Source of the DNA: Oxalicibacterium flavum
GTDB lineage: Bacteria; Pseudomonadota; Gammaproteobacteria; Burkholderiales; Burkholderiaceae_D
Reading direction: 5' to 3'
DNA length: 64,000 nt
NCBI RefSeq assembly: GCF_014635065.1
Contig: NZ_BMCG01000001.1
Location: 496,001 to 560,000 of the forward strand
Within the stretch, counting starts at the first letter, position 1, and each line of letters begins with the position of its first letter. Of the stretch, positions 9,727 through 33,214 are shown one piece after another. Made by a program: the position numbers and the translations under genes. The notes under the pieces were generated by a model. It did no database searches and was not told the origin of the DNA. It saw only the letters and a list, made by a program, of their open reading frames with translations.

Positions 9727-11646
9727 CTACTCCACCATCTCGCCATCGAGCGCCATCATCACGGGCGCCGCGACCGGCTTGCCGTCCTTGTCTTCCGGAC
9801 GCTTGCCGAGCAGGTAATAGTCGAGCGCCATCTTGGCGATCGGCGCGGCAGCTGCCGATCCGAATCCGCCGTTTTCGACGATCAGCGCAATCGCGATCCT
9901 GGGCTTGTCGATCGGCGCGAACGCCGTGTACAGCGAGTGATCGCGATGCCGATCCTTCATTTTCGACGCATCGTATTTTTCATTCTGCCTGATCGTGATT
10001 GCCTGCGCCGTTCCGGTCTTTCCGGCCGACTCGTAACCGGCATTGCGGAAGACGCGCGAACTCGTGCCTTCCTTGACCACGCCGGCCATGGCGTGCTTGA
10101 CGAAGTCGATGTTCTCCTGCTTGAGCGGAATGCGGTAGCTCTCCTTGTGCACCGTCAGCGCGCGCTCTCCGCTCACGCCATCCTCAATGGATTGCACCAG
10201 ATGCGGCTTCATGACCACGCCGTTGTTGGCAAGCGTGGCCGTCGCATGCGCGAGCTGCAATGGCGTGAAGGCGTTATAGCCCTGGCCGATGCCGATCGAA
10301 ATCGTCTCGCCCGCGTACCAGCGCTTCTGCTCGGGCTTGCGATAGGCCTCGCGTTTCCACGCCGTCGAGGGCAACACGCCGCTACGCTCGAACTCGAGGT
10401 CGATGCCGGTCTTCTGGCCAAAGCCGAACGGCTTCATGAAATCGTGAATGGTATCGACACCGAGTTCACTGGCGAGAATGTAGTAATAGGTATTGCACGA
10501 CTGCGCAATGGACTTGTACATGTCGACGATGCCATGGCCGTTGGGCTTGTCGTCGCGGAACCGGTGGTTGCCGAACCAGAAATAACCGGGGTCAACGATC
10601 GAATCCGAGGGCTTGCGCTTGCCCAGCTCCAATGCCGCCAGCGCCATGAAGGGCTTGTAGGTCGAACCCGGCGGATAGGCGCCCGACAGCGGGCGGTTCA
10701 GCAGCGGATGATCGGGCGAATTATTGAGTTCATCCCAGCTCTGCTGGTCGATGCCTTCGACGAACAGATTGGGATCGTAATTCGGCATCGAGACATAGGC
10801 GAGGATGTCGCCGGTTTCCGGCTCGATCGCGATCAGCGCACCGCGCCGGTCGCCGAAGGCCTGTTCGACCACCTTCTGCAGTTCGATGTCGATCGACAGG
10901 ATCAGGTTGGAGCCGGGCGTGGCCGGCGTGCGCGACAGCGTGCGGATCGGCCGCCCGCCGGCCGAGACCTCGACCTCCTGATAGCCGGTGCGGCCGTGCA
11001 GGACTTCCTCGTAGCTGCGCTCCACGCCTTCCTTGCCGATATGCTCGGTGCCGCGATAGTTGGCCGATTCGCCATTTTCATCGATGCGCTTGACGTCGCG
11101 GTCGTTGATGCGTCCGATGTAGCCGATCACGTGCGCCGCGGTCGCGCCCTGCGGATACTGGCGGAACAGGCGCGCCTGCACTTCGACGCCGGGGAAGCGA
11201 TAGCGCAGCGCCGAGAAGCGCGCGACTTCCTCGTCGGTCAGGCGCACGCGGATCGGCGAACTGGCGAGGTTGCGCGACTCTTCGCGCAGCTTGCGGAAGC
11301 GGCGGCGGTCACGCGGCGTGATCTCGACCACGGTCGCCAGCTCGTCGATCAGTTCCTCGAGATCGCCCTGGATCTTGGACGGCGTGATCTCCAGCGTGTA
11401 GGCCGAGAAATTGCGCGCCAGCACCACGCCGTTGCGGTCGGTAATCAGGCCGCGATTGGGCACGATGGGAATCACCGAGATGCGGTTGTCCTCGGCCTGC
11501 GCCACATAATCGTCGTGCTTGAATACCTGCAGCCAGAAGAAGCGCGCCGCCAGGCAGACGAACAGCACGAACACCAGCGCACCGGCCACCGACAGGCGCA
11601 GCCGGAAGCGATGCAACTCGCGTTCGGTATCCTTGAATTCAGTCAT
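9727..11646 (-). CDS. mrdA: Penicillin-binding protein 2 (elongasome transpeptidase)
   Basis: 639 residues, a class B PBP that cross-links peptidoglycan during elongation. There is one membrane segment at about 22-42, a dimerisation/pedestal region, and a transpeptidase domain with the nucleophile Ser328 in STYK, the second motif SCN and the third motif KTG at 543-545. It lies between mreD and rodA in the usual elongasome order. No missing catalytic residue was seen. Confidence 0.96.
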   Translation of the reverse strand: MTEFKDTERELHRFRLRLSVAGALVFVLFVCLAARFFWLQVFKHDDYVAQAEDNRISVIPIVPNRGLITDRNGVVLARNFSAYTLEITPSKIQGDLEELIDELATVVEITPRDRRRFRKLREESRNLASSPIRVRLTDEEVARFSALRYRFPGVEVQARLFRQYPQGATAAHVIGYIGRINDRDVKRIDENGESANYRGTEHIGKEGVERSYEEVLHGRTGYQEVEVSAGGRPIRTLSRTPATPGSNLILSIDIELQKVVEQAFGDRRGALIAIEPETGDILAYVSMPNYDPNLFVEGIDQQSWDELNNSPDHPLLNRPLSGAYPPGSTYKPFMALAALELGKRKPSDSIVDPGYFWFGNHRFRDDKPNGHGIVDMYKSIAQSCNTYYYILASELGVDTIHDFMKPFGFGQKTGIDLEFERSGVLPSTAWKREAYRKPEQKRWYAGETISIGIGQGYNAFTPLQLAHATATLANNGVVMKPHLVQSIEDGVSGERALTVHKESYRIPLKQENIDFVKHAMAGVVKEGTSSRVFRNAGYESAGKTGTAQAITIRQNEKYDASKMKDRHRDHSLYTAFAPIDKPRIAIALIVENGGFGSAAAAPIAKMALDYYLLGKRPEDKDGKPVAAPVMMALDGEMVE

Positions 11647-11714
11647 GCTTTTCCGGTAGCGGATCGCGCGCGGACGCGGACCTCAACATTCTCTCTTCAT
11701 GACGCGCACGGCCG

Positions 11715-12230
11715 TCAAATCGGCCGCGTGTCGTCCTTGTCGGTGGCGCGGCGTTGCGGTGCCAGCAGCAGCCACGTGACGAACGGCCACAAGATGGCGG
11801 CCACCAGGCTCTCGGCAAAGATCAGCCAGCCCGGGAACGGGCCGCCCACCATCAGCCGCACCACCAGCCCGACCAGTTGCGCCAGCAACATCAGCGCGAA
11901 CACATGCAATGCCTGCACTCCCATCGGAAACCACAGCACGCGACGGTGGATCATGATCGCGAAGTAGGACAGCAGCGTATAGGCCAGCGCGTTCTCGCCC
12001 AGCAGCGATGCATCGTGCACGTCCATCAGCAATCCCATGAAGAAGGCGATGCCGATACCGACCTTGCGCGGCTGATGGATGCTCCAGAACACCAGCGTCA
12101 GCGCGACGAAGTCAGGAATGCCGACCCACTGCCCCCATGGCAGCAGATTGAGCAGGAAGGCAATCAGCAGACTGAACGCGATGAACAGCGGGCTGGCCGG
12201 CAGCAGGATGTAATGCGGATGCTGGCTCAT
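11715..12230 (-). CDS. mreD: Rod shape-determining protein MreD
   Basis: 171 residues, mostly hydrophobic with about five or six membrane segments, the size and place of MreD. It links MreC to the RodA/PBP2 complex in the inner membrane. Its ATG overlaps the mreC stop (ATGA type), indicating translational coupling. Assignment rests on hydrophobic pattern plus position between mreC and mrdA. Confidence 0.9.
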   Translation of the reverse strand: MSQHPHYILLPASPLFIAFSLLIAFLLNLLPWGQWVGIPDFVALTLVFWSIHQPRKVGIGIAFFMGLLMDVHDASLLGENALAYTLLSYFAIMIHRRVLWFPMGVQALHVFALMLLAQLVGLVVRLMVGGPFPGWLIFAESLVAAILWPFVTWLLLAPQRRATDKDDTRPI

Positions 12231-13207
12231 TGCGGCGCCTCCGGAGCGGTTTCTTCCTGCGCGGCAGGCGCTTCAGGCGCCTTTTCCTCCACTACGTCGC
12301 CGCGACTAGTCGCATGCTGCAGCAAGCCTTTCTTGCGGCCGGCCTGCTTGTTCTCATCGGGCGGACGCGGCTCGTACTTGTTTTCCACCAACAGGATCAG
12401 GAGCTGGCGATTGCGGTCGAAGCCGGCGGTCGGCTTGCAGACGATGCGCGCGAACATGTCCGACTTGCGCTCGACCTCGGTGACGGTCGCCACGGCCAGT
12501 CCCGCCGGATAGATGCCGTCGATGCCCGAAGTAACCAGCACATCGCCTTCCTGGATATCGACGTTGGACGGCTGGAACCGCAGTTCCAGCAGGTTCGACT
12601 GGCCACGGCCGTAGGCCACGCTGCGCAGGCCGTTGCGCACCACCTGCACCGGCAGCACCTGATCCTTGTCGGTCACCAGCGTGACTTCGGAACTGAACGG
12701 GAACACGCGCGTGACCTGCCCCACCACGCCGACATGGTCGATGACCGGCTGGCCGCGTTCGACGCCACTCTGGCTGCCGCGATCGAGCATGATCTTGCGC
12801 GTGAACGGATCGCGCGTGTCGTAGAGGATTTCGCCCATGATGGACTTGACCGGCAGGCGCTCCCTGGCTTCGAGCAGATTGCGCAACTGGGCGTTTTCCA
12901 TCAGCAGCAACTGCCCCTGCTGCAAGGCGTGCGCATCGATGGTCTGTTGCCGCTTGAGTGCCTCGTTCTCGGCCTTGATGTCGGTCAGCGTGGTGAAATA
13001 GTCGCCCACGTAATACAGTACGTCGCGCGGCGCCATGGCAACGACCTGCAAGGGATAGAGTGCGGTGGACACCACCTGCCGTACCACGCCGAGCGTGCGC
13101 ATGTGGGAATCGATGAACAGCAACACCAGCGCAATCAGTGCAAAGCACACCATCTTCGCGCGTGCCGAGGCACCTTGTTTGAAAAGCGGTGGTGGGCTGT
13201 ATTCCAT
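12227..13207 (-). CDS. mreC: Rod shape-determining protein MreC
   Basis: 326 residues. One membrane segment at about 20-40 is followed by a coiled coil at about 70-110 and two beta-barrel domains in the periplasm (IMGEILYDTRDPFTRKIMLDRG, residues about 122-143, is a typical MreC stretch). The tail of about 45 residues is Pro/Glu/Ala-rich and low in complexity. MreC scaffolds and activates PBP2. The gene lies 174 bases after mreB, with a hairpin in between. Confidence 0.93.
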   Translation of the reverse strand: MEYSPPPLFKQGASARAKMVCFALIALVLLFIDSHMRTLGVVRQVVSTALYPLQVVAMAPRDVLYYVGDYFTTLTDIKAENEALKRQQTIDAHALQQGQLLLMENAQLRNLLEARERLPVKSIMGEILYDTRDPFTRKIMLDRGSQSGVERGQPVIDHVGVVGQVTRVFPFSSEVTLVTDKDQVLPVQVVRNGLRSVAYGRGQSNLLELRFQPSNVDIQEGDVLVTSGIDGIYPAGLAVATVTEVERKSDMFARIVCKPTAGFDRNRQLLILLVENKYEPRPPDENKQAGRKKGLLQHATSRGDVVEEKAPEAPAAQEETAPEAPQ

Positions 13208-13274
13208 TTAATGCCTGGGGGAGCTGCCGGGGATGGCTGAAATGCGGGTCGCCAAAGTGCGGATCACGGACTGG

Positions 13275-13304
13275 CGCCGCCGGTCCTGCATGAGGCCGGC
13301 GGCG
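13275..13304 (-). repeat. GC-rich hairpin between mreB and mreC
   Basis: A perfect 9-bp stem, CGCCGCCGG at 13275-13283 pairing with 13296-13304, with a 12-base loop. No T-run follows on the minus strand, so it is not a standard terminator. It may act as an mRNA-stability or partial read-through element that keeps mreB expression above mreC. Confidence 0.45.
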
Positions 13305-13381
13305 GCAAGAGACTCTGTTTCGCTACGGACTTTCTTCATCGGTTCATGCGTTCATCGAAGAATGCGCACAAGCCGGGACGA

Positions 13382-14551
<1,170 letters not shown>

Positions 14552-22245: not shown

Positions 22246-22273
22246 ACGGCAAGAACCTCTCTGCCGGCCGCGA

Positions 22274-24259
22274 TCAGACGGCGCCGATCACCCCGCCATC
22301 GTCACGCGTGATGAGCACGGTGGTCGAGCGCGGGCGCGTGACGCCATCGCTGGCCGGATAGCTGATGCCCGGATGCTGGATGTTGATCCACATCGCGCGG
22401 CTGTCGGGACTCCAGGTCAGGCCGGTGATTTCGCAGCCGCGCGGGCCGACCAGGAAGCGCCGCACCTCGCGCGTGGCCGGATCGGCGCACAGGAGCTGGT
22501 TGCAGCCCATGGTCTGCATCACCGGTTCGGCATCGTCGTAATCCGTCTCTATCCAGAGCCGCCCGTCCTTGTCGAAGGCGAGCCCGTCCGGCGAGGAAAA
22601 CAGGTCGCCCTTGATGTTGCCGGTCAGATGCGCCGGCACCGGCCTGCCGTCGGCATCCTTGCTGCCGTCCGCCTCGCCCGCCAGCAGGAACAGTTCCCAG
22701 CGGAAGGTGGTGGCGGCCGGATGGTTGCCGGCTTCGTTGATGCGCAGGATCTGTCCGTGCAGGTTCTGCGGGCGCGGATTGGCGGCATCGACCGCGAACT
22801 TGTCGCCGCGCTGGTCGTTGTTGGTCAGCGTGACGAACACGTCGAGCGACTGCGGATGCACGGCAGCCCATTCCGGCCGGTCCATCGGCGTGGCGCCGAG
22901 CAGGTCGGCGGCGGCGCGCGCGTTGAGCAGCACCTCGGACTGGCTGGCGAAACCGTTCTCCGCAACCAGTCCTTCATTACCATGCACGAGCGCCTTCCAT
23001 TCACCGGAACCGTCGGCCGCCAGCCTGGCGACGTACAGCGTGCCGCTGTCGAGCAGGTCGCGGTTGGCCGCCGGATTGGCGGCATCGTAACGGCCGGCCG
23101 GGACGAATTTATAAACGTATTCGCCGCGCGTATCGTCCCCGGAATAGAAGGCCATGCGGCCGTCGGCCGCCACCGACGGCGTGGCGCACTCGCGGCAGAA
23201 GCGGCCGAAGGCGGTACGCTTGACCGGCTTGCTGTTCGGGTCGAAGGGATCAATTTCCACCACCCAGCCGAAGCGATGCGGTTCGTTGACGTAGCCGCCG
23301 TGCGGTTGCGTCGCGTCGGGCGTGGCGTCGAAGCGCGGATCGGCGCTTTCCCACGAGTAGGTCTTGCTGGCGCTGCCGTTCGAGATGCCGTAGCGCTTGT
23401 GCGAAACGCGCTGCGCATAATCCTCGCGATCGCGGTTGACGAAATAGTTGTGCCAGTTTTCCTCGCACGCGAGATAGGTGCCCCACGGCGTGAAGCCGCG
23501 CGAACAGTTATTGAGCGTACCCAGCACCTCGCGCCCCGACGGATCGGCCGCCGTCTTCATCGATGCGTGGCCGGCCAGCGGTCCGCTGATGCGCATCGGC
23601 GTCAGCGCCGAGATGCGCCGGTTGTAGTGCGACGGATAGATGCGCTGCCACTGTCCCTGGGCATCCTTGCTCACCTCGATCACGCTCACGCCGTGCGCTG
23701 CCTGCTCCTTGCGCACCTCGGCCAGCGGCCGCCTGCCGCCGACTTTGCTCATGCCTTGCGGATGCAGGGTCGGGTTGACGTATTCGTGATTGATGACCAG
23801 CAGGCCGTGACGATCGGGATCGTCTGCGAACGGAAAATAATGCATGCCGTCGTGGTTCTCGCCCGCCTGCAGCGACTGCGCCTGCCAGCCGTCGCTGGCG
23901 TCGGCCTTCCAGGCCGGCGCACCACGCTCGACCGGATCGCCCCACGAGAAGAAGGCACGCGCGGTATAACCTTCGGCCACGATCACGCGATCGAATGCCG
24001 GATCCTGCTGCACCGGGATGCCGTCGAATCCGATCAGGCGCGCCGGCAGTTCGCCTGACGCCTTCTGCCCGCCTTCCAGCCCGCAGCCGCCGAGAAATCC
24101 CAGCGCCGCCACACCGAGGCCGCCCTTCAGGACATGGCGCCGTGTGACGCTGGAAAGAGCTGCCAGCGCCGGGTTGTTGCTGGGGTTGATCGCCAGATCG
24201 TCATGCGCCTGCATCTCCTGATGGAAGCGTGCGCATTCCTGTTCCATATGCTTTTTCAT
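22274..24259 (-). CDS. phoX: PhoX-family phosphatase (DUF839), Tat-exported lipoprotein
   Basis: 661 residues. A twin-arginine signal (RRHVLKGG, Arg40-Arg41) is followed by a lipobox LGGC with Cys59, so it is likely Tat-exported folded and lipid-anchored. The rest is a beta-propeller of the PhoX/DUF839 family (EGYTARAFFSWGDPV, then CSRGFTPWGTYLACEENWHNYF). PhoX is a Ca2+/Fe-dependent alkaline phosphatase that releases phosphate from organic esters. It is the last gene of the receptor-phytase-tolQR-tonB series, 43 bases after tonB, fitting final dephosphorylation of phytase products. Confidence is high in family, moderate in substrate. Confidence 0.85.
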   Translation of the reverse strand: MKKHMEQECARFHQEMQAHDDLAINPSNNPALAALSSVTRRHVLKGGLGVAALGFLGGCGLEGGQKASGELPARLIGFDGIPVQQDPAFDRVIVAEGYTARAFFSWGDPVERGAPAWKADASDGWQAQSLQAGENHDGMHYFPFADDPDRHGLLVINHEYVNPTLHPQGMSKVGGRRPLAEVRKEQAAHGVSVIEVSKDAQGQWQRIYPSHYNRRISALTPMRISGPLAGHASMKTAADPSGREVLGTLNNCSRGFTPWGTYLACEENWHNYFVNRDREDYAQRVSHKRYGISNGSASKTYSWESADPRFDATPDATQPHGGYVNEPHRFGWVVEIDPFDPNSKPVKRTAFGRFCRECATPSVAADGRMAFYSGDDTRGEYVYKFVPAGRYDAANPAANRDLLDSGTLYVARLAADGSGEWKALVHGNEGLVAENGFASQSEVLLNARAAADLLGATPMDRPEWAAVHPQSLDVFVTLTNNDQRGDKFAVDAANPRPQNLHGQILRINEAGNHPAATTFRWELFLLAGEADGSKDADGRPVPAHLTGNIKGDLFSSPDGLAFDKDGRLWIETDYDDAEPVMQTMGCNQLLCADPATREVRRFLVGPRGCEITGLTWSPDSRAMWINIQHPGISYPASDGVTRPRSTTVLITRDDGGVIGAV

Positions 24260-24302
24260 GGGTCATTCTTCATCGTTGAAAGTACCGGGCACCTGCTCGC
24301 GC

Positions 24303-25090
24303 CTATTGCACACCCTGCGCGATGCGGTACTGGAAAGTGTTGTTTACGTCGGGCACGGCCACGGCCCGGCCATCGATCACGCGCGGTTCGTAGCGGAATC
24401 CCCTGGCCGCCTCGAGCGAGGGGCGAATGAAGAGCGGATGACAGTCGCCCACCACCTGCGGCTGCTCGACGCGTCCCATGGCGTTGACCGTGTAGCTGAC
24501 GGTGCAACTACCCTCGATGTTCTTGTCCAGCGCCCGTTGCGGATAGGCGGGCGCCTTCTTCTCGATGGGCAGATACTGCCGGCTGGCCGCCAGCCGCTCC
24601 GCTTCCATCTGCCGCACTCGCGCTGCCTGCTCGGCTGCCTCGCGCGCGCGTTGCTCGGTTCGTTGCTGATCAGCCTGACGCTGCGCCTCGGCCTCTCTCT
24701 GCACAGTATCGTCTTGCGATTCCTGCCGATCTTCGCGCGGTGCCGTCTCCGGCACGGCCTTGGTCTCCGGCTTCATCCGCTTGTGCGCCAGCTCGGCGCG
24801 CTCAGGGCTGGGCGGCGCGATCGGACGAGGCAATTCTTTCTTCTGCGGCGCAGGTTCAGGTGCCGCCGTCACCGGCTCGGCGACCGGCTGCGGTGCAGAG
24901 ACAATCATCGCAATACGGATACTGGCAGGCGGCGGTGCGGGCGGCATCGGCGCCTGCCAGTTCAGCAACAACGAAGCACCGATCAGCAGGTGAAAGCCGA
25001 TTGCCAGCCCGCCCGCCGTCAGCTTGCGAGCCGGCAGATCGGGCTTCATGGACAACGCAAACATCGGGCTCTCGGACATGGCCGCTGCAC

Positions 25091-25094
<4 letters not shown>
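24303..25094 (-). CDS. tonB: TonB energy-transducing protein
   Basis: 263 residues: one N-terminal membrane segment (about 26-46), a Pro-rich stretch (about 48-100), a charged helical region rich in Gln, Arg and Glu (about 105-165) resembling TolA spacers, and a TonB C-terminal domain (APAYPQRALDKNIEG onward). It carries proton-motive energy to outer-membrane receptors, here presumably the receptor encoded upstream. Its start overlaps the tolR-like gene by 4 bases. Two cysteines in the C-domain are unusual for TonB and might form a disulfide. Confidence 0.85.
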
Positions 25095-25534
<440 letters not shown>

Positions 25535-25547
25535 GCCGTTCCGCTCC

Positions 25548-26261
25548 TTACGCCGCCATCGCTTCGGCCGGCCGGCGCACGGCGCCATGCAGGAGTCGAT
25601 GCAGGCGCATCTGCAGCTCGTTGCCGAAATGGTAGTAATGCGCGCCCAGCGTGGCGGCACGCGCACTCAGGCGGTTGTAGGCGATGACGGCCGGAATCGC
25701 CGCGAACAGGCCGATGGCCGTGGCGATCAGCGCTTCGGCAATGCCGGGAGCGACGGTCGACAAGGTGGCCTGCTGCACCTGCGACAACCCGATGAAGGAA
25801 TTCATGATGCCCCACACGGTGCCGAACAGACCGATGTAGGGGCTGACCGAACCGACCGTGGCGAGAATCGACAGGCCCTGCTCGAGCTGCGTTTCCTGTT
25901 CGCCGATGGCGACCAGCATGGCGCGCTCGACGCCTTCGCGCACTTCGTCGGCGGCCATGCCGGGTTCGCCCGCCAGCTGCAGGTATTCGTGGTAGCCGGC
26001 CAGGAACACCGGCAGCACGCCGCCGTCGTCCGGCGCGCGGCGCGTGTCCTGATACAGACGGTGCATGTCGGCCGTCTGGCGGAAGCGCGCGCGGAACTGT
26101 TGCAGTTCCTTTTCGCGCCGGCGCAGGCCCGCATTGCGCAGGATGATCAGATACCAGCTCAATACGGACGCCAGTACCAGGATCAGCATCACCGCCTGTA
26201 CCAGCAGACTGGCGTCGGCGATCAGCCCCCAGATCGTCATGTGTTCAAGTGTGTCTTGCAT
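25548..26261 (-). CDS. ExbB/TolQ-type motor subunit
   Basis: 237 residues with three membrane segments (about 14-36, 140-162, 172-195). The stretch SVSPYIGLFGTVWGIMNSF followed by VAPGIAEALIATAIGLFAA is the MotA/TolQ/ExbB proton-channel signature and reads as TolQ. It forms the pentameric channel around TolR/ExbD. The neighbours are a TonB and a receptor, not tolA-tolB-pal, so it likely serves the Ton function. It lies 13 bases before the tolR-like gene. Confidence 0.9.
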   Translation of the reverse strand: MQDTLEHMTIWGLIADASLLVQAVMLILVLASVLSWYLIILRNAGLRRREKELQQFRARFRQTADMHRLYQDTRRAPDDGGVLPVFLAGYHEYLQLAGEPGMAADEVREGVERAMLVAIGEQETQLEQGLSILATVGSVSPYIGLFGTVWGIMNSFIGLSQVQQATLSTVAPGIAEALIATAIGLFAAIPAVIAYNRLSARAATLGAHYYHFGNELQMRLHRLLHGAVRRPAEAMAA

Positions 26262-26280
26262 GGGAGATTCCTCGCTGTCC

Positions 26281-26303
26281 GTCCCGCCGCATGCGAGCGG
26301 GAC
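26281..26303 (-). repeat. Intra-operon hairpin between phytase and tolQ-like genes
   Basis: GTCCCGC (26281-26287) pairs with GCGGGAC (26297-26303) around a 9-base loop. It lies in the 87-base gap between the phytase stop and the tolQ-like start. No T-run follows on the minus strand, so it looks like a stability or partial-attenuation element. A palindrome TGAATG-A-CATTCA lies beside it at about 26311-26323. Confidence 0.45.
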
Positions 26304-26348
26304 GCTTCATTGAATGACATTCATGTTGCAGCTTGATGACCACGGCGT

Positions 26349-28322
26349 TCATTCCAGTCCGAGCGCGTCAGCCACCGCCGACCACGGCAGGTACTTGTAA
26401 TTCTGGTTGCCTTCCGGCATGCGCTTGCGGCCGTCCTGCACCACCAGCATGCCGCGCTGCCAGATGCCGCCGAGATTGGCCGAGGTCACCTCGAGGCCAT
26501 CGGTTTCCGACACGCCGTCTATGCCCTTCTCGGCATCGAGGCCGATGCGGAAGGCGCCGCGCGGCGCATAGGGCGGCCTGCCATCGAGCACGACATAACT
26601 GTCGTTGCCCTGGCTCGAAATCACCAGATAATCGTTGCGCTGTCCCTGATAGAAGGCGAGTCCCTCGATATCGTCATGCACCAGCGGACCGACGCCGATC
26701 ACCTTGTCGAGCTGCGGCGCCACTTCGGCACGCGCATCGAGCGCCCACACCGCAACATCTTCCTCGCCAACGAACAGGCGCTGGTTGCGGTCATCGGCCA
26801 CGCAGCCTTCGGGCTGGCTGGCGACCCGGAAGCGGCGCACTTCCTCGCTGGCGATGCGTCCCTGCACGGAACGCAGGCGGTATTGCACGAAGGTGCCGTC
26901 CTTGCCATTGGGAATCGCATACACGCGGCCCTTGTCGTCCTTGAACATGCAGATGCCATAGATGTCCTTGAGCGTGGTCGCCTGCTGTCCGAGATCGCTG
27001 ACCTTGCCACTGCTGCGATCGATGCCGAACAGGTGCAGGCTGTCATGGTCGCGGTTGGTCGCCACCGCAAGATCGATCAGGCGGCCGTTGTGCATGAAAC
27101 CGGCACGGATATCGACATTGTTCAGACGTCCCACGCGCAGGTCCTGCAACTGCCGACCCTGCAGGTCATAGACCAGCAGGCCGCCCTGCTTGTCGGTCGC
27201 CAGCACGCGGCTGCGCGCCGGATCGGTCGGATGCACCCAGATCGCCGGATCGTCGGCGGCGTCACCCAGGCTCGGCACGCCATCGGTCTGCACCTGCGCC
27301 GGCAGTACCGGCAATGCGGCACGCTTCTGCGGCGCCGGCGGCAGCCAGTCGAGCGATGCACGGTGCAGGCCGCGCTCGTCCTGGATCAGCAGCGCAAGGC
27401 CAGCGCCATCGACACGCGCGCTCAGGTTTTCCGGTTCATCGAAGGCATCAAGCGCGATTACCGGCCGGGCCTGCCAGCGCTTCTTCCTTCCCTCCTGCAC
27501 ATAGCGATGCAGCGTCTTTTGCTCGGCATCGAGCAGCAGCACGCCGCCCGGCACCACTGCCATGCCGGCCGCGCTGCCGGCAATGTCGCCGAACGGCTTG
27601 ACCGCCGCCACCGGGTAACGCACCAGATCGGCTTCGGCATGCGCCTCGTAGGCCCACAGGCCGACCTTTTCCTCGTTCACGTAGAGCAGTTCCGCTTCGT
27701 CATCGACGCGGCAGAACTCGCTGGCAGGCGGCAGGCTCAGCGCGCGCACGCGCTGCGGCCGGCCCAGCGGCGTCGCATGGTGTGCCACCAGCCATTGTTC
27801 GCCCAATCCTTCTTCGCCAACCAGGAACAGAAAGGCATTGGCCGTGCTGTCGCGATAGAGGCAGACGCCATCCACCTTGAACGACGGTCGCGGCAGATAC
27901 TGCGGCGCGCTCCAGCGGCCGGCCGTCATGCCGACCACCATCGGCTGCTGGCGATCGACATCGACGGTTGCCAGCAGAAAACCCTGCGCATCTATACGGT
28001 GATCGATGGCGCCGAATTTTCCAGGCAGGCGGCTCAGTTCCCGACCGTCCTGCGCCAGCACCAGCAGCCCCTTCTTCTTGTGCACGACCAGGCGGTCGGC
28101 GCCAGCCAGAAAACGGTCGTCGGACAGCAGCTGCGCGCTTTCCACCTTGAGTTCGCGATCGATGGCCGCTGCCTGCAAGGCAGGAACCGCCGCCGGTGCA
28201 GGCACCGGCGCCTGCTGTTCGGCCACCTGCGCCGACACGCTGCGCGGATGCTGACAGGCAGACAGTCCCAGCACGAGCGCCAGCAGCAGGCCGCCTTTCA
28301 TGAATGGATGTTGCATAGGCAT
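26349..28322 (-). CDS. Dual-domain beta-propeller phytase, lipoprotein
   Basis: 657 residues. A lipoprotein signal (lipobox LSAC, Cys23) precedes a diverged propeller-like first half (about 40-320) and a complete beta-propeller phytase domain (about 325-650). The second half carries typical strands: GDAADDPAIWVHPTDP, LNNVDIR, TNRDHDSLHLF, QPEGCVADD, and DDIEGLAFY. These enzymes use Ca2+ to remove phosphates from inositol hexakisphosphate. It lies 19 bases after the receptor gene, so substrate capture and hydrolysis are co-expressed. A first half that is incomplete is known in dual-domain phytases and may help with short substrates. The lipid anchor suggests outer-membrane location. Confidence 0.88.
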   Translation of the reverse strand: MPMQHPFMKGGLLLALVLGLSACQHPRSVSAQVAEQQAPVPAPAAVPALQAAAIDRELKVESAQLLSDDRFLAGADRLVVHKKKGLLVLAQDGRELSRLPGKFGAIDHRIDAQGFLLATVDVDRQQPMVVGMTAGRWSAPQYLPRPSFKVDGVCLYRDSTANAFLFLVGEEGLGEQWLVAHHATPLGRPQRVRALSLPPASEFCRVDDEAELLYVNEEKVGLWAYEAHAEADLVRYPVAAVKPFGDIAGSAAGMAVVPGGVLLLDAEQKTLHRYVQEGRKKRWQARPVIALDAFDEPENLSARVDGAGLALLIQDERGLHRASLDWLPPAPQKRAALPVLPAQVQTDGVPSLGDAADDPAIWVHPTDPARSRVLATDKQGGLLVYDLQGRQLQDLRVGRLNNVDIRAGFMHNGRLIDLAVATNRDHDSLHLFGIDRSSGKVSDLGQQATTLKDIYGICMFKDDKGRVYAIPNGKDGTFVQYRLRSVQGRIASEEVRRFRVASQPEGCVADDRNQRLFVGEEDVAVWALDARAEVAPQLDKVIGVGPLVHDDIEGLAFYQGQRNDYLVISSQGNDSYVVLDGRPPYAPRGAFRIGLDAEKGIDGVSETDGLEVTSANLGGIWQRGMLVVQDGRKRMPEGNQNYKYLPWSAVADALGLE

Positions 28323-28341
28323 GTTTCGTTCTTTCGTATGA

Positions 28342-30858
28342 TCAGAAATCGGTCAGGGTCAGGCTGATCTTGTAGGTCGGGCCGTACTTTTCGTACTGCG
28401 CGTTGAGATCGCGGCGACCGCTGTAGATGTAGTAAGACTCGTTGGTCAGGTTCTGCGCCATGAACGAGAGCTTGATCTTCGGCGTGATGTAGTAGCTCGC
28501 GCTGAAATCGACGAACAGCTGCGAATCGGCGTGGCGATCGCGATTGGCGTCATCGACGGCCGCCACCTCGGCCAGATAGCTCGACTTGTAGTTGGCCGAC
28601 AGGCGCGTGCTGAACTTTCTGTTCTCCCAGCCCAGCATCAGGTTGCCGACCTTGCTCGACTGGTTGGGCAGATCGATGGTGCGGCGCGTGCCCAGTCCTT
28701 CGATCTCGGCGCGCGAATGGCTGAAGGTGGCATTGGCGCCGACCAGCAAGCCGTTCCACGGCGACGGCAGCCAGTCGAGCTTCTGCGAATAGGCCAGTTC
28801 CAGACCATAAAGTTTGGCCTCGTTGCCGTTGGCGAAGGTCACGGCCTCGCTGAAGTCGGCCCATCTGCCGTTGCCGGCCAGATCGGTCTGATAGACGAAG
28901 TTTTTGATGTCCTTGTGGAACACGAAGGCCGACAGCACGCCGGCACGGCCCATGTAATGCTCGATGCCGACGTCGATGTTGCGCGCCTTCAGCGGATCGA
29001 GATCGGGATTGCCGAAGCTGGCTTCGTCGTCGTCGATCACGAAGCCCGGCGCCAGCGCCTCGAAGGTCGGACGCACCACGGTATTGGTCCAGGCCGCGCG
29101 CAGCTTGGTGCGGTCGTTCAACTGATAGCTGCCATGCAGGCCCGGCAGCCAGTGGTGATAGCGCTTGATGCTGTTGTTCTCCTCGAACTCGCCATCGTTG
29201 ATGCCGGTGCCGCTGGCCGAGAAACGCGTGCCCTCGTAGCGCAGGCCGGCGATCACGCGCCATTTGTCGATGTCGATGGTGTTCATCACATAGGCGGCGT
29301 TGATGTCTTCGCTCATGCGGAAATCGTTGATGCGCGATTCTTCCTCGTCGTAGGCAGCGTTGTGGTCGAGCGTGGCCAGCAGGCGGCGGATCGCGGCGTC
29401 GCTGATGCCGGGGCCGAAGTAGCCGAGACCGTAACGCGCATTGCTGCCGGCATAGCTGTCGAGTCCCGTGGGCGCACTGCCGAAATCGTCATACTTCCAG
29501 ACGTTCAGTTCGTTGCGCTTGTCGCGGCGGCTGATCTTGCCGCCGAACTTGATTTCGGACGCATGGCCGTTCCAGTCGTACTGGCGCGCAAGGTCGAGGC
29601 GGATGCTCTTTTCGGTATCGGTGGTCTTCTGCGATTCCGCTTCCACCTCGTCCAGCGTGAATTCGGTCGGATCGTAGAAGCCGGCACCAATGTTCAGGCG
29701 CGGCCGGCCCGGATTGGTGTAGCCTGCATTGGAGAAGTCGTCATTGCCTTCGAAGCCGGCGCCGGCGATGCCGAACGGCAGCTTTTCGCTGGCCTTGCTG
29801 TAGCCGAGCTGGCCGCTGGCGGTCCACAGGCCGAACGAGCGTTCGCCGCCCAGCACATAGGACTGGATCTGCTGCGTTTCCTTGCGACTCTTCAGTTCAC
29901 GGTAGCCTTCCGCATCGCCGGTCTCGCCCGGCGCCAGCGGATCGGCGAATTCCACGCCGGCCGCATTGCGCTGCTCGGTATCCGAATAGCGGCTGAACAG
30001 CGTGCGCAGATAATAGTTGGACGTGTCGTCCGGCTGGTAATCGAAGTTCAGACCCACGCCCAGGCGTTCGCGCGTGATGTCGTAGCGGCGCTGCTCCATT
30101 TTCTCCAGCCGCGGCACGGCCGGGTCCGACAGGTCCCAGGCGCCTCCGGTCTCGACGTTATCGGAACCGAACTTGCGCTTCTGCCAGCTCACGGCCGCCG
30201 CCACGCCGAAGTTCTTGCGACCGCCGCCGATGTCGAAGCGGTTACTGATCGCGCCCGAGATCTTGGGGCTGTTCTCGCCGCTGTTGTCGTCGTGGCTGCC
30301 TTCGACCGACAGCGTGCGGAACAAACCTTCGTGATCGAAGGCCGACAGGCTGTGCACCTCGACCGTGCCGCCCAGCGAGTTGGCGTCCATGTCGGGCGTC
30401 AGCGTCTTGACCGCGGTGATCGACTGGATCAGTTCGCTCGGCAGCACGTCGAGCGCCACCGCGCGACGATCGCTTTCCGGCGCCGGCACCAGCGTGCCGT
30501 TGATGGTGACGCTGTTGAGATCGGGCGCGATGCCGCGAATGCTGACGAAGCGCCCCTCGCCCTGATCGCGCTCGACCGAGATGCCGGGAATCCGCTGCAG
30601 GGCTTCCGCCGCGTTGTCGTCCGGCAGCTGGCCGATACCGTCGGCATGCACCACGCTCTGGATACGATCGGAACGGCGCTGCTCGCCGAGCGCCTTGTCG
30701 ATCTGCACCGCCTGGCCGACGACATCGACGTATTCGACCGCATTGCCGTCCGCGCTCTGCGCGGCCGCCGTGGTCGAGAGGCTCGCCATGGCAATCGCCA
30801 TCAGGCTCAGCCTGAAACCTGCAGCACAGGTCTTCCCTGAATTCATGCACACATTCAT
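28342..30858 (-). CDS. TonB-dependent outer-membrane receptor
   Basis: 838 residues. A signal peptide ends at STTAAAQ (about residue 32), a TonB-box-like segment EYVDVVG follows, then the plug domain (RIPGISVERDQGEGRFVSIRG, about 80-100) and a 22-strand barrel ending in Phe (YKISLTLTDF). It resembles the Xanthomonas/Caulobacter class of receptors that import complex organic nutrients rather than siderophores. The first ATG at 30858 has GGGGAG at good spacing, which decides the start. It is the first gene of the phytase operon with a Pho box upstream, so its ligand is probably phytate or a breakdown product (inference). Confidence 0.9.
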   Translation of the reverse strand: MNVCMNSGKTCAAGFRLSLMAIAMASLSTTAAAQSADGNAVEYVDVVGQAVQIDKALGEQRRSDRIQSVVHADGIGQLPDDNAAEALQRIPGISVERDQGEGRFVSIRGIAPDLNSVTINGTLVPAPESDRRAVALDVLPSELIQSITAVKTLTPDMDANSLGGTVEVHSLSAFDHEGLFRTLSVEGSHDDNSGENSPKISGAISNRFDIGGGRKNFGVAAAVSWQKRKFGSDNVETGGAWDLSDPAVPRLEKMEQRRYDITRERLGVGLNFDYQPDDTSNYYLRTLFSRYSDTEQRNAAGVEFADPLAPGETGDAEGYRELKSRKETQQIQSYVLGGERSFGLWTASGQLGYSKASEKLPFGIAGAGFEGNDDFSNAGYTNPGRPRLNIGAGFYDPTEFTLDEVEAESQKTTDTEKSIRLDLARQYDWNGHASEIKFGGKISRRDKRNELNVWKYDDFGSAPTGLDSYAGSNARYGLGYFGPGISDAAIRRLLATLDHNAAYDEEESRINDFRMSEDINAAYVMNTIDIDKWRVIAGLRYEGTRFSASGTGINDGEFEENNSIKRYHHWLPGLHGSYQLNDRTKLRAAWTNTVVRPTFEALAPGFVIDDDEASFGNPDLDPLKARNIDVGIEHYMGRAGVLSAFVFHKDIKNFVYQTDLAGNGRWADFSEAVTFANGNEAKLYGLELAYSQKLDWLPSPWNGLLVGANATFSHSRAEIEGLGTRRTIDLPNQSSKVGNLMLGWENRKFSTRLSANYKSSYLAEVAAVDDANRDRHADSQLFVDFSASYYITPKIKLSFMAQNLTNESYYIYSGRRDLNAQYEKYGPTYKISLTLTDF

Positions 30859-31264
30859 CACAACTCCCCTTGGATAATTTGCCCACGCCCTGTCGAGGAC
30901 ATCGGGGCGCATCTTGACCATGCGATGTGACAGTTCCATGACAGACCAGACGGGAGTCGCGTGAAACGGGTGGAATTGCGTGGTGTTGCCGATGAATCTG
31001 AGCTGATTTGACCATCCGGCGACTGGCCTGCGAGCAGTCCGCGCATACTCGGCGGCATGGACAAAAAGTGCTCGCAATGCATGGCCAGCCTTGGTGCACG
31101 CCACCGGCCGATACCGGATGCTCTGCGCGTTCGGTAAAAAAATCTGCACGAGCGCTGCGCTGAATTGACCCGTTGCAGCCATGCCGCATGTCACGGAACT
31201 GCAATGTTTGCGCATTAGCATGCAGCAGATCGTCAACCATCGCGGCCGCGCGCCGCACCATCCC
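30859..31264. other. Divergent intergenic region between receptor and GGDEF genes
   Basis: About 400 bases between the divergent receptor gene and the GGDEF gene. It holds the Pho box at 30927-30944 and the receptor leader. I see no other gene here; the part right of 31000 may contain the GGDEF promoter or the first codons if the GGDEF protein starts at 31181 or 31220. Confidence 0.6.
30927..30944 (-). promoter_or_regulatory. Pho box (PhoB binding site)
   Basis: On the minus strand the sequence is CTGTCAT-GGAA-CTGTCAC: two 7-base direct repeats with a 4-base spacer, both matching the PhoB consensus CTGTCAY. It lies 68 bases upstream of the receptor ATG. A weak -10-like CAAGAT is found 10 bases downstream, the usual distance in PhoB-activated promoters, where the box replaces the -35. 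Confidence 0.85.
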
Positions 31265-32179
31265 ATGCACCCGTTCTTCACGCATCGCACACTGACGCTG
31301 GCCGGGCTGGCACTGGCCGCCATCGCCGGCCTCTACCTCTATCTGCTGGCCGGCGACGTCAAGCCGTGGGCCGAGATCGACTGGATGGACGTCTTCGCCG
31401 AAGGCGGCACCGCGCTGTTCGCGCTGCTGTGGCTGATGCTGCTGCTGACCAGCCGGCCGTCGGGTCGCGTCACGCATCTGCTGGCCGTCGGCCTGTGCTG
31501 CTTCATCTTCTCGTGGTGGATGGACATGCTTGACGAATTCATCGTCATCCCATCCACCGTGTTCTGGGACAACTGGCTGGAAAACCTGCCGATCCCGATC
31601 GGGCTGCTCATCCTCAGTTGCGGCATCTATCAGTGGCATCGCGAGGAACTGGCAATCCGCCTGCAGATGACCAAGCGCGAGCGCGTGTTCCGCGAACATC
31701 GCCTGTTCGACAAGCTGATCCCGCTCGGCGGCGCCGGTTATCTGCGCGAACAAGTAAAGATGGCGGTGCGCGAATCGGGCCGCCAGCAGCAGCCGCTGGC
31801 GCTGGTCGCCATCGACATCGACGACTTCCACCAGATCAATCGCCACCACGGCCCACAGGAAGGCGACAACGTGCTGCAGTCGGTCACGCAACTCCTGCTG
31901 CTGAACCTGCGCGGCCAGGACCTGCTGTGCCGTCTGGCCGGCGACCGCTTCGTCGCCGTGCTGCCCAACACCGGCGAAGCGGCGGCACGGCAGATCGCCG
32001 ACGAATTGCGCAGCGCCGTCGCCAGCCTCGCCTACAAGACCACGGGACAAGGCGAGCGCATCCATCTGTCGGCCAGCACCGCCGTCACCATGGCACTGGA
32101 CGAGGATTCGGAAACACTGATCGCGCGCGTCAACCTCGACCTGGTGCACGCCAAGCAGAACATCACCGCCAGTTCCTGA
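31265..32179 (+). CDS. Membrane protein with degenerate GGDEF domain and intact I-site
   Basis: 304 residues from the ATG at 31265. Four membrane segments (about 8-29, 45-60, 70-90, 105-122) precede a GGDEF domain. The signature is AGDRF (225-229) instead of GGDEF, so diguanylate cyclase activity is probably lost. The allosteric I-site RGQD (216-219) is exactly five residues upstream, as in c-di-GMP-binding proteins. It may therefore sense c-di-GMP. ATGs at 31181 and 31220 are possible alternative starts; none has a good ribosome site. An AraC regulator follows after 3 bases. Confidence 0.8.
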   Translation: MHPFFTHRTLTLAGLALAAIAGLYLYLLAGDVKPWAEIDWMDVFAEGGTALFALLWLMLLLTSRPSGRVTHLLAVGLCCFIFSWWMDMLDEFIVIPSTVFWDNWLENLPIPIGLLILSCGIYQWHREELAIRLQMTKRERVFREHRLFDKLIPLGGAGYLREQVKMAVRESGRQQQPLALVAIDIDDFHQINRHHGPQEGDNVLQSVTQLLLLNLRGQDLLCRLAGDRFVAVLPNTGEAAARQIADELRSAVASLAYKTTGQGERIHLSASTAVTMALDEDSETLIARVNLDLVHAKQNITASS

Positions 32180-32182
32180 ACC

Positions 32183-33214
32183 GTGGCCATCAAGCTCAAG
32201 GGCTACGAGCGCGACAGCAGCTTCATCGCAGCGCGCCACCAGCCCGCCATCCTGCTCGACCTCGGCATGTCGCGCGGCATCGACAGCCATCTGCTGCTGC
32301 GCGGCACGCAGCTGTTTCTCGACGACATCCTGAGCGGACACAAGCAGATCAGCCCGGCGCAGTTCCTCGCCATCATGGCCAACGTGCACAAGCGGCTGGA
32401 CGCCGACGACACCAGCTTCCTGTACGGCCAGCGCCTGCTGCCGGGCCATCTTGGCGACGTCAGCCAGGCGCTGCATCACGCCGGCAACCTGCGCCAGGCC
32501 CTGCAGCACCTGTGCGCCTGCCATGCGCTGCTGTCGCCGCTGCTGACGCCACGCCTGGTCGAAAGCCGCACGCATGCCTTCGTCTATTGGCAGGACAGTT
32601 GCGGCGCCGGCAGCATGCGCACCTTTCTGGTGGAAGCCGGCGTCACCGCCGTGGCCGCCATGACGCGCTGGCTGTCGGGGGAACGGCTGCCATGGCGCTT
32701 CAGCTTCATGCATGCGCGGCCGTCCTACATCGAGCAGTACTGGGTACATCTGGGAGAAGACCTGGCCTTCGGCCAGCAGCTCGACATGATGGTGCTGCCG
32801 CGCGCCTGGCTCGACCGTCCGTGGCAAAACACCTCGGCCATCGGCCTGCAGACGGCGCTGGCCGGCAGCCGCGCGCAGATGGACGCACTCGAATGGCAGG
32901 AGAGTTTTCTCGACACGCTTTACAACCACCTGCGCCGGCACATCCGGCAACCGCTGCATCTGGATGGCGTGGCCGAGGCGTTCGACATGAGTCCGGCCTC
33001 ACTCAAGCGCAAGCTGCAAAAGCACGACACGCACTTCCAGGAACAACTCGATCTGGCGCGCAAGCATGTCGCGCTGTACCTGTATCAGGTCGAAGGCTGC
33101 AGCAACCAGGAAGTTGCGCATTACCTGCGTTTCAACGACATCAACAACTTCCGCCGTTCCTTCAAGCGCTGGACCGGCTGCGCGCCCGGCCACCTGCAAC
33201 CGGCCTGCTTCTGA
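32183..33214 (+). CDS. AraC-family transcriptional regulator
   Basis: 343 residues starting with GTG, three bases after the GGDEF stop, so the two are translationally coupled. The N-terminal part (about 1-200) resembles the arabinose-binding-like ligand domain of the OruR/ArgR-type AraC subgroup. The last 100 residues hold two helix-turn-helix motifs (DGVAEAFDMSPASLKRKLQ, then SNQEVAHYLRFNDINNFRRSFKRWTG). The target is unknown; candidates are its own operon, the divergent phytase operon or ampG downstream. Confidence 0.9.
   Translation: MAIKLKGYERDSSFIAARHQPAILLDLGMSRGIDSHLLLRGTQLFLDDILSGHKQISPAQFLAIMANVHKRLDADDTSFLYGQRLLPGHLGDVSQALHHAGNLRQALQHLCACHALLSPLLTPRLVESRTHAFVYWQDSCGAGSMRTFLVEAGVTAVAAMTRWLSGERLPWRFSFMHARPSYIEQYWVHLGEDLAFGQQLDMMVLPRAWLDRPWQNTSAIGLQTALAGSRAQMDALEWQESFLDTLYNHLRRHIRQPLHLDGVAEAFDMSPASLKRKLQKHDTHFQEQLDLARKHVALYLYQVEGCSNQEVAHYLRFNDINNFRRSFKRWTGCAPGHLQPACF

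What the first reader, a model, noticed from the sequence alone, without database searches (positions are those of the whole stretch)
22274..30944. PhoB-type phytate scavenging operon: receptor, phytase lipoprotein, dedicated Ton motor and PhoX
Six leftward genes with gaps of 19, 87, 13, -4 and 43 bases encode a TonB-dependent receptor, a dual-domain beta-propeller phytase, TolQ/TolR-like motor proteins, TonB and a Tat-exported PhoX phosphatase. A near-perfect Pho box (CTGTCAT-N4-CTGTCAC) stands 68 bases before the first start. The sequence shows order, motifs and box. Known biology: phytases of this type have been found beside receptor genes in other bacteria, and PhoX removes phosphate from esters. 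The inference is one self-contained unit: capture at the outer membrane, hydrolysis on lipid-anchored enzymes and energy from its own motor.
Basis: partly seen in the sequence, partly recalled or inferred. Interest (0 to 1): 0.85.

Follow-up and report, generated by a model that had tools for sequence, protein, structure and literature searches.

The report
Phytate-scavenging locus with its own switch
A bacterial gene cluster that appears to capture the plant phosphorus store phytate, cut it up and power its own uptake is also tied, in almost every relative examined, to a paired regulator (an AraC-type switch and an apparently inactive c-di-GMP enzyme), probably acting through a newly seen DNA site next to the phosphate-starvation box.

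Summary
In detail: six leftward genes (receptor, dual-domain phytase, TolQ, TolR, TonB, PhoX) with the stated gaps and a 13/14 Pho box 68 bases before the first start. Receptor-phytase-TolQ-TolR-TonB recurs in 77 of the 80 nearest phytase relatives; PhoX follows in 31. In 392 genomes of the family, phytase (108) and this AraC (106) coincide in 105; the 104 pairs on one contig are divergent and within 6.4 kb. All 88 adjacent GGDEF proteins compared have a degenerate catalytic motif and 86 keep the RxxD I-site: a c-di-GMP receptor rather than a cyclase. A new element, GTCAnnTCAGCTCA, precedes the receptor in 84 of 93 upstream regions (11/12 or better), mostly 53-54 bases before the Pho box; a second Pho box often faces the GGDEF gene. 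Best reading: a mobile phytate module under joint PhoB and AraC control with its own TolQR-type Ton motor. Cargo, c-di-GMP binding and regulation are inferred. A published exoproteome study found no evidence of PhoBR control of Pseudomonas phytases; the conserved boxes make that testable.

The parts
32183..33214 (+). AraC-family regulator (PF12625 N-domain, HTH_18), candidate activator of the locus
   Evidence: both above cut-off; conserved beside the phytase
31265..32179 (+). Membrane protein with degenerate GGDEF domain (AGDRF; RxxD I-site kept). The longest ORF starts at 31181; the ATG at 31265 fits the 305-aa relative in L003. Membrane nature judged by eye from hydrophobic stretches
31188..31205 (+). 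Weak Pho-box-like site (10/14) facing the GGDEF gene; 11/14 or more in 50 of 88 regions compared
31156..31169 (-). Distal copy of the conserved element, GTCAATTCAGCGCA (11/12)
30999..31012 (-). Proximal copy of the conserved element GTCANNTCAGCTCA (12/12), 54 bases upstream of the Pho box; candidate AraC operator
30927..30944 (-). Pho box CTGTCATGGAACTGTCAC (13/14)
28342..30858 (-). TonB-dependent receptor, TonB-Xanth-Caul subfamily (TIGR01782)
30712..30735 (-). Candidate TonB box of the receptor, EYVDVVGQ; the pattern is in 76 of 80 motor-bearing receptors, 0 of 16 motorless ones and 0 of the 47 other receptors of this genome
26349..28322 (-). Dual-domain beta-propeller phytase, lipobox LSAC; phytase motifs only in the C-terminal domain
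25548..26261 (-). TolQ-class proton channel protein
   Evidence: (TIGR02796 248.2 over cut-off 221)
25091..25534 (-). TolR/ExbD-family protein
   Evidence: TIGR02801 127.6 over cut-off 127.3
24303..25094 (-). TonB energy transducer
   Evidence: PF03544 50 over 24.6
22274..24259 (-). PhoX-family phosphatase with twin-arginine motif followed by a lipobox-like LGGC

Best explanation
It is a mobile organic-phosphate (most likely phytate) utilisation locus of eight genes in two divergent operons. Under phosphate starvation PhoB binds the Pho box before the receptor gene (shown: conserved box; inferred: binding) and, in many relatives, a second box before the GGDEF-AraC operon. Full induction also needs the AraC-family protein bound at GTCAnnTCAGCTCA, mostly 53-54 bases upstream of the Pho box (shown: conserved element and spacing; inferred: that AraC binds it, and what it senses, perhaps an inositol phosphate or inositol). 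The GGDEF protein probably does not make c-di-GMP; it looks like a c-di-GMP receptor that tunes the response (inferred from a degenerate A-site motif and a kept I-site). The receptor imports phytate or partly dephosphorylated inositol phosphates, energised by a dedicated TonB driven by a TolQ-TolR-class motor rather than ExbB-ExbD (shown: sequence class and linkage; inferred: energising and cargo). The phytase and, where present, PhoX release phosphate at the cell envelope (inferred from families and signals).
For: Gene identities. Conserved order with short gaps in the 80 nearest relatives. AraC and phytase coincide in 105 of 392 genomes, Fisher p = 5.5e-91 without correction for kinship; 104 of 104 same-contig pairs are divergent and within 6.4 kb. 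Pho box: best forward site 11/14 or more in 68 of 92 distinct upstreams, 67 of 1840 shuffles reach the observed score. Element: 12/12 in 63 and 11/12 in 21 of 93, reverse strand at most 9, 20 of 4650 shuffles reach the observed score; spacing 53-54 in 72 of the 90 (of 94) with a proximal copy. Two 10/12 copies in Catenovulum, where no Pho box was found. Signature AG[DE][RK][FY] in 88 of 88 adjacent orthologues, RxxD in 86. Motor is TolQ-class. TonB-box pattern in 76 of 80 motor-bearing receptors, 0 of 16 motorless, 0 of 47 others of the genome. Second, different motor-plus-PhoX arrangement in G183. Divergent Pho box of 11/14 or more in 50 of 88 regions, against 7 of 1760 shuffles.
Against: A published exoproteome study found no evidence that the phytases of P. 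stutzeri DSM4166 and P. fluorescens SBW25 are PhoBR-regulated (PMC5082522, passages). No binding, transport or expression data here. PhoX is missing behind TonB in 46 of 77 motor-bearing loci (one of the 46 has under 2 kb downstream) and the motor from 16 of 18 family loci, so neither is needed for a receptor-phytase pair to persist. Many upstream regions come from close Pseudomonas relatives. The window's divergent Pho site is weak (10/14). In G183 the element is at best 9/12, and 4 of 94 upstreams have no proximal copy of 10/12 or more. The TonB-box contrast follows the receptor phylogeny. The genome's own ExbB also scores higher with the tolQ than the exbB model (168.7, 128.2), though under both cut-offs, and its own tol-type TolR (112.7) falls under the TolR cut-off that the operon's just passes, so the class labels are soft.
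Confidence: 0.72

Rival explanations
1. A plain PhoB operon: the six genes are induced by phosphate starvation alone, and the neighbouring AraC/GGDEF pair regulates something else and is only a passenger.
For: Strong, conserved Pho box; in Caulobacter and Flavobacterium phytase and TonB receptors respond to PhoB or phosphate starvation (PMC11208175; PMC8115612; passages).
Against: 105 of 108 phytase genomes carry the AraC gene, adjacent and divergent in 104 of the 105; the element sits on the receptor promoter even where the GGDEF gene is 1-2 kb away, e.g. L010, L019-L022.
Confidence: 0.15
2. The receptor imports another organophosphate, or a metal chelated by phytate, and the phytase mainly frees that metal or clears the ligand.
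For: TonB receptors classically import metal chelates (recalled), and this genome has 48 Plug-domain matches.
Against: Pho boxes at the promoter, a PhoX gene in the operon, and the receptor next to the phytase in 80 of 80 named loci and 17 of 18 family loci.
Confidence: 0.15
3. The TolQ-TolR-TonB genes are a general spare Ton system serving many receptors and sit here for no special reason.
For: The genome has 9 MotA/ExbB-family matches, 7 TonB_C matches (5 over cut-off) and 48 receptors, so motors could be shared.
Against: Same position in 77 of 80 relatives, a distinct TonB-box pattern in these receptors, and a different motor in the same slot in G183.
Confidence: 0.12

Closest known systems
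Fjoh_1367 phytase / Fjoh_1368 TonB-dependent transporter of Flavobacterium johnsoniae (PMC8115612, passages seen)
   Same: Phytase beside a TonB receptor, both induced by phosphate depletion; authors propose that such transporters target organic phosphorus
   Different: Bacteroidetes; no dedicated motor, AraC or GGDEF pair in the passages seen
PhoB regulon of Caulobacter crescentus (PMC11208175, passages seen)
   Same: A phytase and several TonB receptors under PhoB
   Different: The passages seen do not describe one operon with motor, AraC or GGDEF
Phytase-adjacent TonB receptor of Citromicrobium bathyomarinum (PMC3400609, passages seen)
   Same: Receptor next to phytase, phytic acid proposed as substrate
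   Different: Prediction from neighbourhood; no motor or regulator in the passages seen
Phytases of P. stutzeri DSM4166 and P. fluorescens SBW25 (PMC5082522, passages seen)
   Same: Same genera (by older names) as many of the closest relatives of this locus
   Different: Authors found no evidence of PhoBR control and suggested induction by phytate itself; the AraC and element found here fit the second idea, the Pho boxes speak against the first. These strains' own loci were not read here
Degenerate GGDEF proteins acting as c-di-GMP receptors (class recalled, no paper read)
   Same: Broken catalytic motif with RxxD I-site kept
   Different: None recalled as tied to a phytase or an AraC gene

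Membership tests
Beta-propeller phytase | PF02333 above cut-off and phytase motifs | tested here: met
   283.1 bits against 21; DDPAIW, NNVDIR, DIEGL, NQNYK once each, all in the C-terminal domain (motifs chosen by eye); aligns to 3AMR over 342-656
TonB-dependent receptor | Plug plus barrel | tested here: met
   PF07715 and PF00593 over cut-off; TIGR01782 604.8 against 310
Tol-Pal system | TolQ and TolR together with TolA, TolB, Pal | tested here: not met
   TolQ and TolR equivalog cut-offs are passed, but the next gene is TonB and the neighbours are phytase and PhoX; another TolQ-TolR pair lies at C1:48356
Ton system (ExbB-ExbD-TonB) | ExbB and ExbD equivalogs with TonB | tested here: not met
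   exbB model 169.8 under 206.2, ExbD models 76.1, 67.1 and 44.6 under cut-offs 216, 152.95 and 123.45; TonB_C present. It may still work like a Ton system
PhoX phosphatase | PF05787 | tested here: met
   531.4 against 24; 532.1 bits to solved PHOX 4AMF
PhoX phosphatase | Tat export signal | tested here: inconclusive
   TRRHVLK present, but PF10518 19.4 is under its cut-off 22.7; RR pattern in 28 of 32 PhoX of the set
Pho regulon | Pho box before the operon | tested here: met
   13/14; conserved in position
Pho regulon | PhoB-dependent expression | not testable with these tools
   Needs expression or binding data
Diguanylate cyclase | GG[DE]EF catalytic motif | tested here: not met
   AGDRF; 88 of 88 adjacent orthologues degenerate (L062 dropped, its GGDEF hit is not adjacent)
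c-di-GMP receptor (degenerate GGDEF) | RxxD I-site kept | tested here: met
   RGQD aligns with PleD RAID (that this is the I-site is recalled); 86 of 88, the other 2 HxxD
c-di-GMP receptor (degenerate GGDEF) | Binds c-di-GMP | not testable with these tools
   Needs a binding assay
AraC family regulator | PF12625 and HTH_18 | tested here: met
   94.4 against 27.6 and 47.6 against 33.6; no NCBIfam equivalog cut-off reached

The most novel reading that the evidence does not exclude
Phytate scavenging in many Proteobacteria is run by a two-key switch: PhoB (phosphate starvation) and an AraC activator (substrate) on a composite promoter of fixed spacing, with a catalytically dead GGDEF protein feeding c-di-GMP status into it; uptake is driven by a private TonB powered by a TolQR-class motor. 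I saw no description of such a c-di-GMP-gated nutrient regulon in the listings and passages.
Probability: 0.4. Interest if true: 0.78.

Novelty: new variant of a known kind. Interest (0 to 1): 0.62.

Why it matters
Phytate is a major organic phosphorus store in soils and seeds. The locus gives a marker set (AraC, degenerate GGDEF, receptor, phytase, motor) for bacteria that scavenge it, a candidate operator, and a direct test of the published view that Pseudomonas phytases lie outside the Pho regulon. A private TolQR-TonB motor and a dead GGDEF protein in a nutrient locus would each be unexpected.

Tried and rejected
Lipid anchoring as a conserved principle: rejected (the pattern is crude, missed at least one likely lipobox in L030, and some ORF starts were read too far upstream). 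An own promoter for phoX: one 11/14 Pho-like site lies inside tonB at 24444, left as chance. The element searched exactly in 13 genus genomes gave 5 sites (G000 2, G127 1, G140 1, G172 1; backwards control 1); two are at phytase promoters. The second one of this genome (C4:232748) lies inside a 721-codon ORF and is taken as chance. A cyclase reading of the GGDEF protein: rejected. No structure prediction was run. By title and the start of the abstract, no paper in the listings describes the AraC/GGDEF link or a phytase operon with its own TolQR motor; two searches listed 20 of 40 and 20 of 1,315, only open-licence PMC papers are held, and six papers were opened (passages only).

Changes made on rechecking: the count of genus genomes with GatB and MetW on one contig was mended from nine to eleven; signature counts were spelled out; the TonB-box count and the second-copy count were recomputed.
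Full report
Observation. The stated parts are present at the stated coordinates. The Pho box scores 13/14 and is the only site of 12/14 or more in the window. CTGTCAYN4CTGTCAY occurs twice without mismatch in the 3.2 Mb genome, once here, and 7 times with up to one mismatch, backwards control 1. One of those other sites stands 30 bases before a gene that I read by eye as polyphosphate kinase, another 64 bases before one read as LepA, which I would not expect in the regulon (no family search was run on either). No terminator-like site lies on the minus strand in the gaps.

Surroundings. The operon's neighbour is a divergent pair: a GGDEF protein and an AraC-family regulator. One search kept the best 80 of 544 phytase relatives, so this set is biased to near kin. 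Of these 80 loci, 72 hold both genes in divergent orientation; the other 8 have the receptor start within 96-1160 bases of the end of the locus (L062 shows only a GGDEF that is not adjacent). Receptor and phytase are adjacent in 80 of 80, TolQ-TolR-TonB follow in 77 of 80 (L008 and L015 end too early; L082 lacks them there), PhoX in 31 of 80. Of 18 loci sampled from the organism's own family, 17 have AraC, GGDEF, receptor and phytase; L140, a distant phytase, has none of the other three. Only L128 and L129 show motor genes.

Co-occurrence. In 392 genomes of the family (an even draw from a larger group) PF02333 is in 108 and this AraC at E <= 1e-45 in 106; 105 have both, 3 phytase only (G001, G237, G370), 1 AraC only (G249); Fisher p = 5.5e-91, not corrected for kinship. 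Of the 105, 104 have both on one contig, all on opposite strands, match starts 5.2-6.4 kb apart; in G385 they are on two contigs. Annotated records repeat the core: a Catenovulum plasmid has AraC, GGDEF, receptor, acid phosphatase and phytase; an Acinetobacter pittii plasmid has AraC, a cyclase-like gene, a phytase in two pieces, tolQ, tolR and tonB. A Sphingomonas plasmid has receptor and phytase without AraC or GGDEF beside them.

GGDEF protein. The catalytic signature reads AGDRF. Of 89 distinct rows, L062 (GGEEF, not adjacent) was dropped; the other 88 are 84 AGDRF, 2 AGDKF, 1 AGERF and 1 AGDRY. The I-site RxxD is kept in 86 of 88, HxxD in 2; its place was set by alignment to PleD, the meaning of that site is recalled. 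Catenovulum and A. pittii proteins also read AGDRF. This is the pattern of a c-di-GMP receptor rather than a cyclase; binding is inference.

Promoter. Aligning upstream regions of seven distant loci shows two strongly conserved blocks: the Pho box and GTCAnnTCAGCTCA. Over 93 distinct upstreams of 350 bases the best copy scores 12/12 in 63, 11 in 21, 10 in 5, 9 in 4; the reverse strand never exceeds 9; 20 of 4650 mononucleotide shuffles reach the observed score. Of 94 upstreams, 90 have a copy of 10/12 or more before the Pho box; the nearest lies 53-54 bases before it in 72, and 13 of the other 18 lie at 32, 42-43, 64 or 75, that is in 11-base steps. This could be helical phasing or a register shift within the 11-base Pho repeats; I cannot separate the two. 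A second forward copy exists in 43 of 74 intergenic regions at 9/12 or more, in 26 at 10/12 and in 17 at 11/12, the window among them; on the reverse strand 15 of 74 have a 9/12 copy and none a 10/12 copy. Catenovulum has two 10/12 copies and no Pho box above 9/14 there, which ties the element to AraC rather than PhoB. On the receptor side the best Pho site is 11/14 or more in 68 of 92 distinct upstreams of 250 bases and lies 30-110 bases before the start in 87; the reverse strand reaches 11 in 6 of 92; 67 of 1840 shuffles reach the observed score. With 400 bases the reverse strand reached 11 in 32 of 79; this is the second box: facing the GGDEF gene, 50 of 88 regions hold a Pho site of 11/14 or more, 33-72 bases before its start, against 7 of 1760 shuffles. 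The window itself has only 10/14. Related strains are over-represented in all these counts; only identical upstreams were merged.

Motor. The channel protein passes the TolQ equivalog cut-off (248.2 over 221) and fails ExbB (169.8 under 206.2); TolR passes narrowly (127.6 over 127.3). As controls, three operon relatives also pass TolQ (254.3, 239, 236.4), the genome's own TolQ passes (289.5), its own ExbB (168.7) and the G183 ExbB (148.4) do not, though both score higher with tolQ than with exbB; the genome's own TolR (112.7) fails the TolR cut-off. The best solved relatives are TolQ. In a tree of 25 rows (18 of the 80 named loci) the operon TolQs and the genome's own TolQ (47% identical) stand apart from four ExbB-type rows, the G183 motor among them (98/96, long branch); most other forks are weak. 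So the operon pairs a TolQR-class motor with TonB. Its receptors match the TonB-box pattern E[YHRKI]VxV[VIF][GS] in 76 of 80 (the other 4 have close variants), motorless receptors in 0 of 16 (motorless L082 has ERIVVIGQ), and the 47 other receptors of the genome in 0. This fits a private TonB but also follows the receptor phylogeny. In same-genus G183 the receptor and phytase (52% and 53% identical) are followed by TonB-ExbB-ExbD and a 485-aa PhoX-family gene.

Mobility. In a quick tree of 49 receptors (32 of the 80 named loci, 16 family loci, the window) the window joins the mainly gammaproteobacterial operon receptors, with KBW02 as sister (100), apart from 15 family receptors (100); G183 is a long branch between. 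Window 10001-45000 and the 22 kb held of Herminiimonas sp. KBW02 share matches only at 22268-33211. The GatB-MetW interval that holds the operon here is 16.7 kb; in the 11 of 12 other genus genomes with both genes on one contig it is 5.4 to 12.6 kb by subtraction (G194 has them on two contigs), and the phytase loci of KBW02 and G183 lie on other contigs. I infer that the unit has moved; what fills the interval elsewhere was not examined. 10 of 13 genus genomes lack phytase and AraC matches.

Known biology. Receptor-phytase neighbours or their phosphate control are known in Flavobacterium, Caulobacter and Citromicrobium (PMC8115612, PMC11208175, PMC3400609; passages seen). A phytase gene of P. 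syringae pv. phaseolicola was induced 3.2-fold by bean leaf extract, not by apoplastic fluid (PMC2803797, passages). Lidbury and colleagues found no evidence for PhoBR control of the phytases of P. stutzeri DSM4166 and P. fluorescens SBW25 and suggested induction by phytate (PMC5082522, passages). The two conserved sites reconcile part of this: starvation alone may not suffice. Those strains' own loci were not read here, and a cell-bound phytase could also escape an exoproteome.

Verdict. The finding is real, conserved and larger than described. The parts are of known kinds; their combination with a private TolQR-TonB motor, an almost constant AraC plus dead-GGDEF pair and a composite promoter is a new variant, with function still to be tested.

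Noticed in passing
whole genome G000: 48 Plug-domain matches (candidate TonB receptors) in a 3.2 Mb genome, which seems many
   Followed up: partly
L129:5300-12988: Same-genus genome with receptor-phytase-TonB-ExbB-ExbD and a different 485-aa PhoX-family gene: a second assembly of the same layout
   Followed up: yes
window 24427-24444: Pho-like site (11/14) inside tonB, about 170 bases before phoX
   Followed up: no
L019-L022, L025, L028 between GGDEF and receptor: 1.8-2.1 kb instead of about 0.3 kb between the two divergent operons; contents not examined
   Followed up: no
L206:4610-5593 and 10939-13509: Catenovulum locus with an acid phosphatase between receptor and phytase, and a phosphoinositide phospholipase C and PhoX nearby
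   Followed up: no
L205:1-9190: Acinetobacter pittii plasmid locus with two alkaline phosphatase genes beside AraC, a receptor region in two frames and a phytase annotated as two genes
   Followed up: partly
L155: Pho box 30 bases before a gene read by eye as polyphosphate kinase in the window's genome
   Followed up: no
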